A stretch of 64,000 nucleotides of DNA. Origin: Bdellovibrio sp. 22V. Its GTDB lineage: Bacteria; Bdellovibrionota; Bdellovibrionia; Bdellovibrionales; Bdellovibrionaceae. The DNA lies in assembly GCF_030169785.1 (NCBI RefSeq), contig NZ_CP125854.1, positions 2,666,001 through 2,730,000 of the forward strand, written 5' to 3'. A program made the translations under genes and the position numbers. Every line of letters starts with the position of its first letter. The stretch's first letter is position 1. The notes under the pieces were generated by a model. That model searched no databases. It was given only the letters and a program-made list of their open reading frames with translations, and was not told the DNA's origin. This document shows, one piece after another, positions 42,584 through 50,007 of this stretch.

Positions 42584-42803
42584 ATGTTTATTCTACCTTA
42601 TGCCTCAATTTGAGCACTCTTTCGTCTTTGACAAGTCTAGGGGAGAAACAAAAGCTGGTTTTTCGTCGAGGGAGAGTGTTCCGTCGAGTGAGTGTTACAC
42701 CGAATACATTCTCGGTTCATATTAGAGACAGTACCTTGCAATTACCATTTACATTTGACACACTTATGTTGGTAAACAGAAAAAAAGAACCATGGAGGTC
42801 TTA

Positions 42804-43379
42804 ATGTTTTCATCTAGAAATTCTCAACGAGGTTTCTCGCTTGTTGAGTTGATGGTTGTGGTGGCAATCATCGGTGTGTTGGCGTCGATCGCCGTTCCTG
42901 CTGTTAATAAATATCTTGCAAAGGCACGTCAGTCTGAAGCTAAAACTAATTTGTCTTCGCTATATACATCTGAAAAAGCTTTTTATGCTGAGTATACTGC
43001 TTATCACAGTATGTTCGGGGCTGTTGGTTTTTCTCCTGAAGGGAAATTGAGATATAATGTGGGCTTTTCAACTTCAACTGGTGATGCTGGTGCAGCGAAT
43101 GGTTATCAGAATCAGCCAGTGGCTCCTGGTAACGTGCGAAACACCATGGCATATTGCACTCAAACTGGTACTATTGGAGCTACGGGATGTACAATTCTTC
43201 GTGGCGCCACAAATGCTTTGCCGGGAGCGCTACCTGGAACGGCTACGGTAACAGCTCCGGCTACAGGTTCAACATTCCGAGCAGAAGCTCTAGCTGTCAT
43301 TCATACTAATGGCGGAAATGATCAGTGGTTTATTGATCACAACAAAGATTTACAAAACTACCGAAATGGTATTCCTTAA
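42804..43379 (+). CDS. pilA: type IV pilin (major pilin PilA)
   Basis: A 191-residue prepilin. The leader MFSSRNSQRG is cut by the prepilin peptidase before FSLVELMVVVAIIG; the mature residue 5 is the glutamate needed for assembly (Glu15 of the precursor). The hydrophobic helix continues to about residue 55, and a C-terminal globular part with two cysteines (MAYCTQTG, TGCTILRG) forms the usual disulfide loop. It closely follows the pilin of Bdellovibrio bacteriovorus that is needed for prey invasion. GGAGG lies eight bases ahead of the ATG; another ATG at 42792 is in frame but precedes the ribosome site. Confidence 0.95.
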   Translation: MFSSRNSQRGFSLVELMVVVAIIGVLASIAVPAVNKYLAKARQSEAKTNLSSLYTSEKAFYAEYTAYHSMFGAVGFSPEGKLRYNVGFSTSTGDAGAANGYQNQPVAPGNVRNTMAYCTQTGTIGATGCTILRGATNALPGALPGTATVTAPATGSTFRAEALAVIHTNGGNDQWFIDHNKDLQNYRNGIP

Positions 43380-44230: not shown

Positions 44231-47200
44231 ATGCGGCTTATCTTCTTAAATACCAGTATTTTTTGTTTTTTATTTGGATATTCAAGTTTTTCTCGGTCTC
44301 AAACTTGTGAGGAAGGAAGGGCAGACACAATTAAAGCATTTAGTGAGGGATGCACTAGTCAGTGTTGGACTGCTCCAGGCTGGCAATCTTGTGCCACATA
44401 TGAGCCGATGCAAATTACTCATGTCGATTCATCAACAGACCGTCTCTCATGCAAGGTCAAATATGTTGAGGATTCGTGGGATATAGTGAATGATCCTCCT
44501 TATCCTCCCTATCATAACGAGTGGGAGGATGAGCATATTCTTTTAGTTCCGAGATGTTTTATGGTACCTCCTGCCGAACCAATTAATCCGCCTCCGGGCG
44601 GGCCAGGTGGCCCTGGCGGTCCCCCTGGCGGATGTCCTGTCTCCGGATCGATAGTTCATATTGAAAGTCAGTCTTTGTCAGAAGAAATCCGAATAACGGG
44701 AGTGAAGGAGCCGCTCGTTTATAATTCAGTATTTCAGCCCGGACGAGAAGATGATTTCAGAATAAAGGTTAAGATATCTGGAGACACTCCGAGGGATTAC
44801 ATTCAATCTTTTTCAATTGAAACGAAACGAGATGGTGTTGTCGTAGATACGGCTTCATTCTCTAATACAACTCCGAATCAAACATATCAGTATGTCTGGA
44901 ACGGTCTCGATGCAAGCAATACGTTTCCTGTTTTATCTGCGAAATTTCAGGTGCGTATGGTTGAAACGTCACCGGCGGGAAGTTTCCCCAATATATTCAA
45001 TGTTTCGTTAGGTCACTTCAATGCCAGAGATATTGGGCTTGGAGGCTGGTTGCCAAAGAATTTTAGACTCTACGATCCATTTTTGAAACGAATTTATTTT
45101 GCCGAAGGTGGATTTAAGGATGTCGAAGCAAAACCCTATAGTGTATCTCAGCTTTATATCGCTTCGGCAGCAGGAAATGAAGTTTATATATTCGACTTAA
45201 ACGGGAGACATTTATATACAAAGACTGCGCTTCTGGGTACCAACATTTACTCATTTAATTATGACAGTCAGGGACGTTTGATCTCGATTGCTGAACCATT
45301 TGGTAAAGTCACAACTTTTAACCGTGATTCCTCAGGCAACTTTAATTCAATTCAAGCACCCAGTGGTCAGTTAACTCTCGTTGGTCTTGATTCAAATGGC
45401 TATATCTCCTCCATAAAGAATCCACGCAACGAAATATATAGTATGAGTTATTATTCTTCAGGTGGCTTGCTGCACACATTTCAGAAGCCAAATGGTGAAA
45501 TTAGTACGTTCGAATATGACCTCGGTGGTAAATTAACAAAAGACTCTCATTCTGGCGGATATTTTTTTGAATTAATTAAGAATATTAATTCTAGCTATGC
45601 GTTTGATATTTCCATGAATACGGCGTTGGGGCGCATGAGCCAAATACAAACAAGCTCGCTCCAAGATGGCAGCATTTCAAGGAATGTAAATAACTCGATG
45701 GGCACGGCTACGTCAGTTTCTTATACGCCACAAGGACCAAATCACAGTTTAAATGAAACGTCGTACGGAGTAACTCGAGCGGTGACATCGATCGAGGATG
45801 CACGCTTTGGAGGAATGGTTAGATTTCCCCAATCGGAAAGTGTATCCAAAGGAGGCGGTACTCGCACAATCGACCGTACACAAAGTGTTATGCTTGCGAA
45901 TATGAACGATCCTTTCTCAATCACGAGCTGGCAGGAAACCTCGCAACTTTCAGGTGAAAACACCAAAATCACAACAGTATTCGATCCGCTTACGAAAAAG
46001 TTTACGGCCACGTCTTTCCTCGGAAAGGTAAAAGAGTGGGCGATAGATTCATATGAAAGAATTGTCTCGGCGAAACAAGGTAATTTGAATGCGGTTAATT
46101 TCATCTATACGAATGAAAACTTAACTTCGATCGTTAATGGAACACGAACGACAACTCTTGGTTACAATGCTTTGGGTCTTCTCGAAAGTATTACGAACCC
46201 TTTGAACCAAACGACCTCCTACGTTTACGATACGGCGAACAGAGTGGCGTCAAAGGTCTTGCCTGACAGTCGCGTGATCTCATTTATTTATGATGGTGTT
46301 GGAAACTTGACGGGAGTGACTCCGCCGGGGCGTCCTCTTCATGCGTTTTCTCTCAATGGCCATGGTTTAGTTGGAGCTTACGAGCCTCCAGTGCTATCTG
46401 GAGTCTCCCTCGTTAACACGACTTACACGTATAATCTCGACAAGCAACTCACTGCGATTGCGCGTCCCGATGGCGGTTTTGTTAATTATAATTTTAACGC
46501 CACGACGGGAGTTCTAGAGAACTATGAAACTCCTGATGGTTTTTATTATCAATATCTTGATACAACAGTGGGGCTTCCTTCCTCTGTTGAGACTCCGTTT
46601 GGAGTTAGTACGCAAATCACCTATATTGGAAGAGAGCCTGCTGGATACAACACATATATTTCCGGCAATAGTGTTGGCAGCTATTCTTCTATTTATGGCG
46701 CAGGTAATCGCAAGGACTCTGATACAGTCATGAATCCAATCGGTACAACATCGACGGTTACTTATTTGTACAACGATGACGAAGATCTTAAGAAGGCGGG
46801 AGACGTTAATCTCACTTATAACGTACCAGACGGTCAGTTGACTGGGACGACAATGGGAACGGGTACGACTGGTTTTTCGGATACATACACGTACAATACC
46901 TATGGTGAAATTGTTGGCTACCAAGCTAAACGAGGCACGACAGTTATCTATGATTTGACGTTGAATCGCGATGCCATGGGAAGAATTGACGGCAAAACCC
47001 AAACAATGAACGGAGCTACGGATAACTACGTTTATACCTTCGACAACTCAGGTCGGCTAAGTCAAACGGACAAGAATTCCGCTGTAGCCGCCACGTATAC
47101 TTATGACACGAATAGTAACCGCAACGGTGGTACTATCGGCGCTCAGCCAACATCGGCAACATATGACGATCAAGATCGTTTGCTCACGTATAACACTTAT

Positions 47201-48274
47201 TCTTTTACATATAATGCGAACGGAGATCTTGTCAGTAAGCTGAACAATACGACAAGCGCACTGACTCAGTATGTGTACGATGTTTTCGGTAATTTGACTC
47301 AAGTAACACTGCCAAATGGAACTGTGATTTCTTACGAGATCGATGGCCTTAACAGAAGAATCGGCAAAAAAGTAAACGGAGTCGTCCAAAAGCGTTGGAT
47401 CTACATGGATCAATATCGAATCGCTGCGGAGTTAAACGCGGCAGGCGCGATCACAAAAAGATTCATCTACGGATCGAAAGCAAACATTCCTGATTACATG
47501 ATCGCTTCAGGAGTAAAATACAGAATCATCTCTGACCACCTGGGCTCGCCAAGACTTGTAGTGAAACAATCCGATGGAGCGGTCATCCAAAGGATGGATC
47601 ATGATGAGTTTGGTAGAGTTATCGTTGATACGAATCCTGGGTATTTGCCGTTTGGGTTTGCGGGTGGGGTTTATGATAACCAAACTAGTTTGGTGAGATT
47701 CGGTGCGAGGGATTTTGATCCGGAGATTGGAAGATGGACATTAAAGGACCCGATTCTCTTCAAGGGGCAAATGGTCAATCTTTATAGCTACGTTTTCAAT
47801 GACCCAGTTAACTACTTTGATCAAAATGGAAGGCTTCCTTGGCTCGTTTCCGGTGCTGTAGGTGGCATTATCGGTGCGGTGGCTGGGGGTATTGGGGCGT
47901 ATGCTACCAATCAAAGTATTCTGGCTGGAATTGCGATGGGAGGAGTTACGGGCTTTGCTGCCGGATCGGGTGGTGCTCTTTTGCTGAAAGCGGCAGCTAT
48001 CATGGAAGTAGGGCTTGGAGGACAGATTCTATCGTCTGCGTTTGGAGCTGGGCAAGCGGCATTCACAAGTAATATCTTGAGCCAACACTTTTTCAATAAT
48101 AAGGTTGACGTTAAGGCAGCAGCAGTAAGCGCGGGCTTATGCGCCATTGGAGGCGCGGGGGGACCAGCTTTAGGCAGTGGGTTATCGGGCGGCGGAGCTG
48201 CTGCCGTTGATATCGGGTTAGGAATAGCGACCCAGCCTTTAGACATTCTGAGTACAATTCTTATGAGTAAATAA
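44231..48274 (+). CDS. Sec-exported RHS/YD-repeat protein with hydrophobic tip
   Basis: A 1347-residue RHS-family protein. A signal peptide (about 1-24) is followed by a cysteine-rich head (30-125) and a proline/glycine linker (NPPPGGPGGPGGPPGG). YD repeats run from about 330 to 1120 (for example YNALGLLESITNPLNQTTSYVYD; YDTNSNRNGGT) and build the closed shell. The RHS core signature FGARDFDPEIGRWTLKDP starts near 1155 and ends in DQNG near 1199. The last 149 residues are a separate, glycine- and alanine-rich hydrophobic tip (VSGAVGGIIGAVAGGIGAY). Such tips are usually toxins. GGGGTG precedes the ATG; a GTG two codons earlier is possible. The cell export is by Sec, not the usual T6SS PAAR fusion. 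Confidence 0.9.
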   Translation: MRLIFLNTSIFCFLFGYSSFSRSQTCEEGRADTIKAFSEGCTSQCWTAPGWQSCATYEPMQITHVDSSTDRLSCKVKYVEDSWDIVNDPPYPPYHNEWEDEHILLVPRCFMVPPAEPINPPPGGPGGPGGPPGGCPVSGSIVHIESQSLSEEIRITGVKEPLVYNSVFQPGREDDFRIKVKISGDTPRDYIQSFSIETKRDGVVVDTASFSNTTPNQTYQYVWNGLDASNTFPVLSAKFQVRMVETSPAGSFPNIFNVSLGHFNARDIGLGGWLPKNFRLYDPFLKRIYFAEGGFKDVEAKPYSVSQLYIASAAGNEVYIFDLNGRHLYTKTALLGTNIYSFNYDSQGRLISIAEPFGKVTTFNRDSSGNFNSIQAPSGQLTLVGLDSNGYISSIKNPRNEIYSMSYYSSGGLLHTFQKPNGEISTFEYDLGGKLTKDSHSGGYFFELIKNINSSYAFDISMNTALGRMSQIQTSSLQDGSISRNVNNSMGTATSVSYTPQGPNHSLNETSYGVTRAVTSIEDARFGGMVRFPQSESVSKGGGTRTIDRTQSVMLANMNDPFSITSWQETSQLSGENTKITTVFDPLTKKFTATSFLGKVKEWAIDSYERIVSAKQGNLNAVNFIYTNENLTSIVNGTRTTTLGYNALGLLESITNPLNQTTSYVYDTANRVASKVLPDSRVISFIYDGVGNLTGVTPPGRPLHAFSLNGHGLVGAYEPPVLSGVSLVNTTYTYNLDKQLTAIARPDGGFVNYNFNATTGVLENYETPDGFYYQYLDTTVGLPSSVETPFGVSTQITYIGREPAGYNTYISGNSVGSYSSIYGAGNRKDSDTVMNPIGTTSTVTYLYNDDEDLKKAGDVNLTYNVPDGQLTGTTMGTGTTGFSDTYTYNTYGEIVGYQAKRGTTVIYDLTLNRDAMGRIDGKTQTMNGATDNYVYTFDNSGRLSQTDKNSAVAATYTYDTNSNRNGGTIGAQPTSATYDDQDRLLTYNTYSFTYNANGDLVSKLNNTTSALTQYVYDVFGNLTQVTLPNGTVISYEIDGLNRRIGKKVNGVVQKRWIYMDQYRIAAELNAAGAITKRFIYGSKANIPDYMIASGVKYRIISDHLGSPRLVVKQSDGAVIQRMDHDEFGRVIVDTNPGYLPFGFAGGVYDNQTSLVRFGARDFDPEIGRWTLKDPILFKGQMVNLYSYVFNDPVNYFDQNGRLPWLVSGAVGGIIGAVAGGIGAYATNQSILAGIAMGGVTGFAAGSGGALLLKAAAIMEVGLGGQILSSAFGAGQAAFTSNILSQHFFNNKVDVKAAAVSAGLCAIGGAGGPALGSGLSGGGAAAVDIGLGIATQPLDILSTILMSK

Positions 48275-48275
48275 A

Positions 48276-48725
48276 GTGTATATAACTAATAAACGGATTT
48301 TAAACATTATATGGCCTTTTGCTCTCGCTGGCGTTGCAGTGGGAGCATTTTTTATCTATATCGGCCATTGCGATATCAACCATGCAAAAAAACTAGATGC
48401 TGAGCAAGGAGGATTCGCATTAGTACTCATGGCATTATTCGGATTGTATCTCAAGTTTGCTCATGAAAAAGAGATCGACATTCAGGGTGACAGTATTACC
48501 CTTCGCAGCAGAGGAATCTTTCTTACACAAAAAGTTATGAGTGTGAAATTTAGCGATATAAGGGGAATTGAGCGAAACGATTTCAATACTCGTTTAGTGA
48601 TTTTCACGAACAGTGGGCAAATAGTTTTGCCATCTTTAGACGATTTCTCCATGCCAGAGGATCTCGGTGATCAAAGAAAATTAGATTACTTAGAAGGTCT
48701 TCTTAGGAAAAAATTAAGTAAGTAA
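48276..48725 (+). CDS. small membrane protein, candidate immunity partner of the RHS tip
   Basis: A 149-residue protein starting with GTG one base after the RHS stop. It has two membrane segments (about 9-29 and 46-61) with a short charged loop (CDINHAKKLDAEQGG), then a cytoplasmic-facing beta-rich part of some 80 residues (IDIQGDSITLRSRG, VKFSDIRGIERND, GQIVLPSLDDF) like a PH or bPH2-type domain. Tight coupling to a toxin-like RHS gene and a membrane location opposite to a membrane-seeking tip suggest immunity. I recognise no named immunity family, so the role is inference. Confidence 0.65.
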   Translation: MYITNKRILNIIWPFALAGVAVGAFFIYIGHCDINHAKKLDAEQGGFALVLMALFGLYLKFAHEKEIDIQGDSITLRSRGIFLTQKVMSVKFSDIRGIERNDFNTRLVIFTNSGQIVLPSLDDFSMPEDLGDQRKLDYLEGLLRKKLSK

Positions 48726-48900: not shown

Positions 48901-49020
48901 GCGCTCTAAACATCCTCTAAAGCTCAATTGAAATTTCATCTTCACTTCAAGAAAACCGTCAAAAATACATTTCGAAAACCCATGTTATGGTGCCTTTGTT
49001 CGCGATCAAAAGGAGTCAAA

Positions 49021-50007
49021 GTGGATTTCAAAAACATTTCAAATAATGAGCTCACGCAACGCCTAGAAAAATTGGTGCGTACCGAAAGGAAGATCACGCA
49101 TCTTATTCTTCTGCACCTCAACGAAATTGAATCGCGCAAAATTTATGCGGAACTTGGCTACGATGGTATGTTTTCTTATCTTACAAAAAGCCTTGAGTCG
49201 AGCGCTTACCGACGGCTGCAGTCGGCGCGCCTCTTAAAACAAATTCCGTCTGTCGCGGAAAAGCTTGAAACCGGCGCCTTGAATTTGTCCCAACTGACGC
49301 AAGTTCAGAAATGCCTCAAAGAAGAAAAGCGAGCAACGGGTGCCGCCGTTTCTCCACTGCAAACTCAGAAGATTCTTCACGAGATTGAACATAAAAATAC
49401 TTTTGAAACGCAAAAAGTTTTGGCGGTGGAATTTAACAAACCAGTCCAAGCACACGAATCTCTAAAGCCTCAGGCTGACGAAACGATTCGTTTGGAGATC
49501 ACGCTCTCCAAGGAAGAATTTGAAGAACTCAAGAAAGCTAAGGAACTGCTTTCACATATTTGCCCACACGGTTCCTGGAGTGATGTCATCACGATGCTGG
49601 CTCAGAAATACAACAAGGCTAAACTAGGAAATAAAAGCGACGACAGTGTTACGCAGAGCTTCGCCGCTTCGAAGGCAGAATCGCGCAAAACAAAAAAATC
49701 CATTTCGCAGAATTTGAATAAGAACCCATCATCGCAATCCAAGCAATCCGAGCAAATCGCAAGAGGAGCCAACTCTCGACCGTACATTTCCATCAAAACA
49801 AAACGCGCTTTGCTCACGGCTGCGAATCATCGATGTCAGTACAAACATAAAAACGGCAAAACTTGTGGTTCCAACTACCAACTTCAGATGGATCACATCG
49901 TTCCCAAGGCGCTGGGTGGTTCGGATGATTCTAGCAATTTAAGAATTCTCTGTCGCACTCACAATAATCTTATGGCGGAAAAATTGGGGTTAAAAAGGAG
50001 GATATAA
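49021..50007 (+). CDS. HNH endonuclease domain protein
   Basis: A 328-residue protein. The N-terminal 200 residues are helical (ERKITHLILLHLNEIESRKIYAELGYDGMFSYL, then a coiled coil through VLAVEFNK) and a lysine/serine-rich linker follows. The HNH nuclease sits at the end (about 262-325): two CxxxxxxxxC zinc-type residues in CQYKHKNGKTC, then QMDHIVPKALGGSDDSSNLRILCRTHNNLM with the catalytic histidine in DHI. GTG 49021 follows AAAGGAG by five bases; the frame is open 31 codons further without a site. Proteins of this build occur in several copies in Bdellovibrio genomes; they may be mobile or phage-linked. Nothing here proves transposition. Confidence 0.85.
   Translation: MDFKNISNNELTQRLEKLVRTERKITHLILLHLNEIESRKIYAELGYDGMFSYLTKSLESSAYRRLQSARLLKQIPSVAEKLETGALNLSQLTQVQKCLKEEKRATGAAVSPLQTQKILHEIEHKNTFETQKVLAVEFNKPVQAHESLKPQADETIRLEITLSKEEFEELKKAKELLSHICPHGSWSDVITMLAQKYNKAKLGNKSDDSVTQSFAASKAESRKTKKSISQNLNKNPSSQSKQSEQIARGANSRPYISIKTKRALLTAANHRCQYKHKNGKTCGSNYQLQMDHIVPKALGGSDDSSNLRILCRTHNNLMAEKLGLKRRI

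What the first reader, a model, noticed from the sequence alone, without database searches (positions are those of the whole stretch)
44231..48725. Sec-exported RHS protein with a glycine-zipper tip and a coupled membrane protein, next to pilA
The RHS shell (residues about 330-1200) ends at a core signature and is followed by a 149-residue tip of quite different make-up: almost only G, A, I, L, V and S with several glycine-zipper stretches, as in pore-forming toxins. The next gene starts one base after the stop and encodes a two-segment membrane protein with a beta-rich tail, the layout expected of an immunity protein to a membrane toxin. The RHS protein has a normal signal peptide and no PAAR or VgrG-like part, so it would be placed on the cell's own surface. 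Next to the prey-invasion pilin, it could be a weapon or a self/prey marker. The toxin and immunity roles are inference.
Basis: partly seen in the sequence, partly recalled or inferred. Interest (0 to 1): 0.75.

Follow-up and report, generated by a model that had tools for sequence, protein, structure and literature searches.

The report
Stapled pore-toxin RHS with immunity partner
A predatory Bdellovibrio carries a secreted protein cage, related to the bacterial ancestors of animal teneurins, that very probably holds a membrane-piercing toxin with its antidote gene alongside, and a cysteine pattern shared by over a hundred such toxins suggests each one is stapled inside its cage by a single disulfide bond.

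Summary
In detail: a Sec-exported RHS protein (44231-48274) with a 147-residue glycine-zipper tip, followed after one base by a 149-residue protein of two membrane helices and a PH-like tail. Toxin/immunity is well supported. HD100- and Tiberius-sized genomes carry the same shell (84-85% identical) at the same locus with unrelated tips and partners. A genome with a 50%-identical shell elsewhere carries the matching tip plus matching partner. Seven tips of this type each precede a two-helix-plus-tail partner. Other tips are known effector domains (Tlde1, M91). No T6SS sheath or PAAR was found. Sequence and fold place the shell nearest bacterial teneurin-like proteins (TLP), without the NHL propeller. 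Pore formation is inferred. pilA adjacency is an insertion site shared by few relatives, not a conserved link. Beyond the finding: 108 of 113 tips from many phyla carry an odd number of cysteines, 74 exactly one; shells are nearly cysteine-free; 57 of 60 proteins have a cysteine just before the plug cleavage site. This generalises the single disulfide seen in BiTLP into a family-wide, testable staple holding the toxin to its N-terminal plug.

The parts
44231..48274 (+). RHS/teneurin-like toxin gene (alternative start GTG 44225; residue numbers here count from 44225)
44231..44302 (+). Sec signal peptide (MRLIFLNTSIFCFLFGYSSFSRSQ), no lipobox
   Evidence: direct reading
44303..44638 (+). N-terminal region with seven cysteines (28, 43, 47, 56, 76, 111, 137), Pro/Gly-rich at its end
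44633..44635 (+). Cys137, aligned with BiTLP C719; predicted half of the disulfide staple
   Evidence: PMC13018210
44645..44650 (+). Gly141-Ser142, aligned with the BiTLP plug autocleavage site G723|S724
44639..45124 (+). FN-plug-like domain (about residues 139-300); no NHL propeller follows
   Evidence: aligns with BiTLP 704-922, then YD-shell at 1265
45149..47830 (+). YD/RHS shell with core (about residues 309-1202), no cysteine
47708..47710 (+). Arg1162, aligned with catalytic-site R2103 of BiTLP
47747..47749 (+). Asp1175, aligned with autoprotease D2116 of BiTLP
47819..47821 (+). Asp1199, aligned with autoprotease D2140 of BiTLP; motif here DQNG instead of DPxG
47831..48271 (+). glycine-zipper tip, 147 residues, predicted membrane-depolarising toxin
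48140..48142 (+). Cys1306, the only cysteine after Cys137; predicted other half of the staple
48276..48725 (+). predicted immunity protein: two membrane helices plus PH-like tail

Best explanation
This is a polymorphic toxin/immunity module on a short, NHL-less teneurin-like (TLP) RHS carrier. The carrier is exported by Sec and oxidised in the periplasm (shown: signal peptide; inferred: export and oxidation). It is predicted to cut itself at G141|S142 in the plug and near R1203 with the R1162/D1175/D1199 aspartyl protease (shown: residues conserved; inferred: cleavage). The glycine-zipper tip is stored in the YD shell and stays tied to the N-terminal fragment through a Cys137-Cys1306 disulfide (inferred from the family-wide odd-cysteine pattern and the BiTLP precedent). 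On contact with another cell the tip is released, inserts in the inner membrane and depolarises it; the two-helix, PH-tailed partner protects the producer and its kin. Because a matched immunity gene travels with the tip, the likely targets include close relatives, for example rival Bdellovibrio at the same prey, rather than prey alone.
For: (1) Same-locus shells in HD100- and Tiberius-sized genomes are 84-85% identical over residues 901-1203, yet their tips score no better than shuffles; G016 with a 50% shell has a matching tip (score 185 against shuffle maximum 102) and matching partner. (2) Seven tips of the window's type (G000, G016, G076, G026, G142, G191, G222) each precede a 145-175-aa two-helix-plus-tail gene on the same strand; the partner sets match by profile, hhalign 96%, E 2.7e-9. 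Glycine-zipper tips precede a small two-helix gene in 13 of 16 cases against 14 of 45 for other tips, Fisher p 9e-4. (3) Other tips in the family match Tlde1, Peptidase_M91, YkuD, DUF6973 and DUF4329. (4) Shell closest to BiTLP by sequence, E 1.7e-111, and by fold, E 5.6e-70; the catalytic Arg and both Asp align. (5) Tip cysteines: 108 of 113 odd, 74 exactly one; plug cysteine in 57 of 60 against about 8.7 expected. (6) No T6SS sheath or PAAR match.
Against: No toxicity, pore, cleavage or disulfide data exist for this protein. AF2 gave no structure for the tip (pLDDT about 20), so encapsulation is by analogy. The tip has no significant match to Tse5-CT, EsxX or any known pore former. The second core motif is DQNG, not DPxG. 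The route from periplasm to target is unknown. HD100 keeps only a 442-aa remnant and Tiberius an IS-split gene, so the system is dispensable.
Confidence: 0.72

Rival explanations
1. The tip is not a toxin but a hydrophobic anchor or translocation segment, and the downstream gene is an assembly or anchoring partner; the protein is an adhesin or self/prey marker, as animal teneurins are.
For: Glycine-zipper segments are common membrane anchors; metazoan teneurins are adhesion receptors (PMC13018210); the tip fills the whole C-terminus with no separate enzymatic domain.
Against: The tip is swapped at one locus with effector-type tips and changes together with its partner, which an anchor would not do; orphan core+tip cassettes with their own partners occur.
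Confidence: 0.12
2. The tip lost its toxic domain: only the translocation-type glycine-rich segment remains and the module is a decaying relic.
For: HD100 and Tiberius copies of the locus are broken; the window tip lacks the near-terminal Cys found in most tips of this type.
Against: The window ORF is intact over 1349 aa; six other tips of the same type have about the same length, with the same partner type; one Cys is still present.
Confidence: 0.08
3. The odd cysteine serves something else: a tip-tip disulfide dimer, a thioester or lipid attachment to the surface, or redox sensing, rather than a tie to the plug.
For: Parity shows only that one Cys is left unpaired within the tip; only one structure shows the pairing (BiTLP C719-C2216, PMC13018210). 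In 36 of 63 tips a Cys is within the last 12 residues.
Against: A cysteine lies just before the plug cleavage site in nearly all proteins checked, and L215 lacks both plug and tip Cys.
Confidence: 0.2

Closest known systems
Bacterial teneurin-like proteins (BiTLP, PDB 9IFO/9PT5; PMC13018210)
   Same: Signal peptide, FN-plug with Cxxx-G|S site, YD shell, aspartyl-protease core, polymorphic tip, downstream immunity gene; the hydrophobic BiTLP tip permeabilises E. coli only when sent to the periplasm.
   Different: Window protein lacks the NHL propeller and the adhesin modules; Bdellovibrionota are not among the six phyla of that study; tip sequence unrelated beyond hydrophobic character.
Tse5/Tsi5 of Pseudomonas aeruginosa (PMC9637101, PMC10684867)
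   Same: RHS cage with a C-terminal pore-forming tip released by the same kind of aspartyl protease; immunity protein with two transmembrane regions.
   Different: T6SS-delivered with PAAR-like N-terminus; here Sec export, no T6SS; no detectable tip similarity.
Glycine-zipper depolarising toxins EsxX/TelE/TspA (PMC12744356) and CDI ionophore toxins (PMC11630599)
   Same: Zipper helices; membrane-protein immunity; CDI ionophore immunity proteins are 72-100-residue two-helix hairpins like the short partners found here.
   Different: Carriers are T7SS LXG or CdiA proteins; the PH-like tail of the window partner is not described there.
STM3941 family (NCBIfam NF041635)
   Same: Weak similarity of the partner and of the G016 partner over the membrane part and strands.
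   Different: Far below the curated cut-off (17 and 22 bits against 40), so not a member.

Membership tests
Bacterial teneurin-like proteins (TLP) | YD shell homologous to teneurin/TLP | tested here: met
   TEN_YD-shell E 7.6e-36; 9PT5 E 1.7e-111; Foldseek top hit 9IFO
Bacterial teneurin-like proteins (TLP) | FN-plug domain N-terminal of the shell | tested here: met
   residues about 119-300 align with BiTLP 704-922, E 5.5e-13
Bacterial teneurin-like proteins (TLP) | NHL beta-propeller between plug and shell (required in the founding study) | tested here: not met
   BiTLP 923-1264 has no counterpart, no NHL match in Pfam; so a TLP-like variant, not a TLP in the strict definition
Bacterial teneurin-like proteins (TLP) | autoproteolytic Arg and two Asp of the core | tested here: met
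   R1162, D1175, D1199 align with R2103, D2116, D2140; cleavage itself untested
Polymorphic RHS toxin/immunity module | conserved carrier with C-terminal region replaced between strains | tested here: met
Polymorphic RHS toxin/immunity module | immunity gene directly downstream, varying with the tip | tested here: met
   (position and co-variation only; protection untested)
Polymorphic RHS toxin/immunity module | tip toxic, partner protective | not testable with these tools
   needs expression assay
T6SS Rhs effector (Tse5-like) | PAAR/VgrG link or T6SS in the genome | tested here: not met
   no TssC or PAAR match; the protein has a signal peptide
Glycine-zipper membrane toxin | GxxxG-type zippers in hydrophobic helices | tested here: met
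   relaxed zippers enriched over shuffles, strict ones only weakly
Glycine-zipper membrane toxin | membrane depolarisation | not testable with these tools
   no assay
STM3941 family (partner) | score above the NCBIfam cut-off | tested here: not met
   17.1 bits against 40

The most novel reading that the evidence does not exclude
Across Sec-exported RHS/teneurin-like toxins of many phyla, every toxin tip, whatever its fold, must keep one cysteine unpaired so that it is stapled by a disulfide to the N-terminal plug; after both self-cleavages this bond is the only covalent tie, so release is redox-gated and export to an oxidising compartment is built into the design.
Probability: 0.5. Interest if true: 0.75.

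Novelty: new variant of a known kind. Interest (0 to 1): 0.62.

Why it matters
How TLP-type toxins hold, carry and release their tips without a known delivery machine is an open question named in the 2026 TLP paper. The odd-cysteine pattern, found here in tips of unrelated sequence, points to one shared mechanical element that can be tested by a single cysteine mutation. It also puts these toxins in Bdellovibrio, where no RHS toxin study was found in the library searched, and suggests that predators fight each other with polymorphic pore toxins.

Tried and rejected
pilA as functional partner: rejected, the position is an insertion site used by a minority. Lipoprotein anchoring: no lipobox before Cys28. 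STM3941 membership: below cut-off. Near-terminal Cys as a sorting signal: first idea, replaced by the parity pattern because the Cys is mid-tip in many tips, the window included. Similarity of the BiTLP tip start to the window tip: low-complexity match, not used. Profile hits of the tip to NDUA11, Tim22 and SGS4: compositional, not used. AF2 of the tip: no confidence. HD100 tip matched by BLAST up to residue 1334: compositional, its score equals shuffles. Literature on the HD100 locus tags Bd1291-Bd1294 and on STM3941 gave nothing usable.

Full report
Observation. The window holds an intact 1349-codon RHS gene (44225/44231-48274) and, one base after its stop, a 149-codon gene (48276-48725). 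Pfam and NCBIfam find the teneurin YD shell, RHS repeats and the RHS-associated core up to residue 1202. The tip, residues 1203-1349, is 74% G/A/I/L/V/S against 43% in the shell; relaxed zipper motifs number 15 against 6.7 in shuffles of the same letters, reached in 0.07% of shuffles, while strict GxxxGxxxG is only weakly enriched (4 against 1.2, 5%). No Pfam or NCBIfam family is matched by the tip.

Genome. The window lies in a 3.60 Mb genome. Two genus relatives have the exact contig lengths known to me for B. bacteriovorus HD100 (3,782,950, G004) and Tiberius (3,988,594, G010) (identification by size, from my own knowledge).

Polymorphism at one locus. G004 and G010 carry clpA, clpS, (pilA), TPR, RHS, small membrane gene, dnaJ, dnaK in the same order. 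Over residues 901-1203 the shells are 84 and 85% identical to the window; the tips score 51 and 25, equal to the means of shuffled tips (52 and 25). G015 at the same place: shell 73%, tip at shuffle level. G016, whose RHS gene lies elsewhere and whose shell is only 50% identical, has a tip scoring 185 against a shuffle maximum of 102, and a 160-aa partner of the same layout. So tip and partner move together and independently of the shell.

Tip-partner pairing. Seven tips of the window's type (G000, G016, G076, G026 third cassette, G142, G191, G222; alignment) are each followed on the same strand by a 145-175-aa protein of two hydrophobic segments and a beta-rich tail. About ten further glycine-rich tips are followed by shorter two-helix proteins, mostly 63-92 aa. 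The profile of three partners and the profile of five others match with 96% probability (few sequences, most of the five chosen because they follow such tips). In 369 genomes of the phylum the strong matches of the partner profile are the three sequences it was built from, and one further clear match, in G026, lies 1.3 kb behind an RHS gene with another tip, as expected of a retained orphan immunity gene. Overall, glycine-zipper tips precede a small two-helix protein in 13 of 16 cases and other tips in 14 of 45, p 9e-4 (at that threshold the window partner was scored with one helix; the tips are not all independent). G026 has an array of three core+tip cassettes, each with its own partner. Other tips match Tlde1, Peptidase_M91, YkuD (weak), DUF6973 and DUF4329.

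Partner. AF2 from the single sequence (pLDDT 62) gives two helices, six strands and a C-terminal helix; the best PDB matches are PH domains, none below E 0.001. It resembles the STM3941 family weakly and below cut-off.

Carrier family. The nearest solved proteins are the bacterial teneurin-like protein of Bacillus inaquosorum (E 1.7e-111; Foldseek E 5.6e-70), then animal teneurins, then T6SS Rhs proteins. The window plug aligns with BiTLP 704-922 and the shell resumes at 1265, so the NHL propeller is missing. Short NHL-less forms predominate in the Bdellovibrionota loci read here, some Acidobacteriota loci look the same, and long NHL-type forms also occur in Bdellovibrionota (judged from lengths). 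BiTLP catalytic residues R2103, D2116 and D2140 align with R1162, D1175 and D1199. The BiTLP tip is hydrophobic, permeabilises E. coli when sent to the periplasm, and is tied by a C719-C2216 disulfide to the plug next to the G723|S724 cut (PMC13018210). The window has C137-PVS-G141-S142 at the aligned place.

Cysteine pattern. In the window protein there is no cysteine between 137 and 1306, the latter being the only one in the tip. Among 63 distinct Bdellovibrionota tips 61 have an odd number; in 17 shells there are 4 cysteines in 17,871 residues. I then tested loci from other phyla, fetched afterwards: 45 of 48 tips odd. Combined: 108 of 113 odd (0:3, 1:74, 2:1, 3:25, 4:1, 5:5, 7:3, 11:1); among tips with two or more, 34 of 36 odd; 55 of 59 similarity clusters odd, p 1.7e-12; nearby ORFs of 80-180 aa, 149 of 332 odd. 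A cysteine lies within 14 residues before the plug G[S/C] (nearly always within 8) or just after it in 57 of 60 mapped proteins, about 8.7 expected. L215 has neither; G142, which reads without a signal peptide, has no tip cysteine (not in the 113). E. coli K-12 RhsA-D have six to ten cysteines before the tip and 3, 6, 9 and 6 in it: a small contrast, not a full control. Limits: tips were picked by a regular expression for the core, and about 20 of 80 loci gave no complete ORF; parity does not show the partner of the odd cysteine. The TLP paper reports the bond in BiTLP as a surprise and its text does not mention conservation; whether it is noted elsewhere was only searched once.

Surroundings. 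pilA (42792-43379) is separated from RHS by a conserved 224-aa TPR gene. In most genus genomes TPR and dnaJ lie about 120-320 bp apart; RHS lies between them in G000, G004, G010 and G015, and just after dnaJ in G024, G006 and G020. The adjacency is an insertion site. No TssC or PAAR match exists in the genome.

Mechanism. Shown: gene layout, polymorphism, tip-partner co-variation, conserved catalytic and plug residues, cysteine pattern. Inferred: Sec export and oxidation; two self-cleavages; storage of the tip in the shell, for which mosquito SGS1 offers a precedent of membrane-type helices stored in an RHS cocoon (PMC10792529); staple; release and membrane insertion; immunity. Delivery across the outer membranes is unknown.

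Verdict. A real, probably functional polymorphic toxin/immunity module; a new variant (NHL-less, glycine-zipper tip, PH-tailed partner) of a known kind. The cysteine pattern is the part most likely to surprise a specialist.

Noticed in passing
113 tips; window residues 137 and 1306: RHS/TLP tips carry an odd number of cysteines (108 of 113) while shells have almost none; fits a conserved plug-tip disulfide.
   Followed up: yes
Plug cleavage site, loci (e.g. L171, L173, L189): The residue after the conserved Gly is Ser or Cys (GS or GC). That swap fits a nucleophile in an N-to-O/S acyl-shift self-cleavage, as in SEA domains (my comparison, untested).
   Followed up: no
L046 4274-5526 (G010, Tiberius-sized genome): The same-locus RHS gene is split by an IS3-type transposase pair; in the HD100-sized genome only a 442-aa 3' part remains (L051 6601-7929).
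   Followed up: partly
L042 4696-5965 (own genome, G000:C1 about 503.7-505.0 kb): Orphan core+tip cassette with a DUF6973 tip followed by a 167-aa two-helix protein.
   Followed up: partly
L043 4383-6942 (own genome, G000:C1 about 1.76 Mb): A 550-aa secreted YD-repeat protein sits directly beside a TadC/T2SS-F-like gene (by eye), suggesting an RHS protein in a pilus cluster.
   Followed up: no
L050 2714-9138 (G026): Array of three core+glycine-zipper cassettes, each with its own two-helix partner; the third has the long, tailed partner type.
   Followed up: yes
window 48928-50007: 359-aa gene with a C-terminal HNH motif, weakly like IscB/Cas9d HNH but far below cut-off; lies between the partner and dnaJ.
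   Followed up: no
L014/L096 (G070, another family): A relative of the post-pilA TPR gene lies directly upstream of an RHS gene with a glycine-zipper tip, so this insertion site is used outside the genus too.
   Followed up: partly
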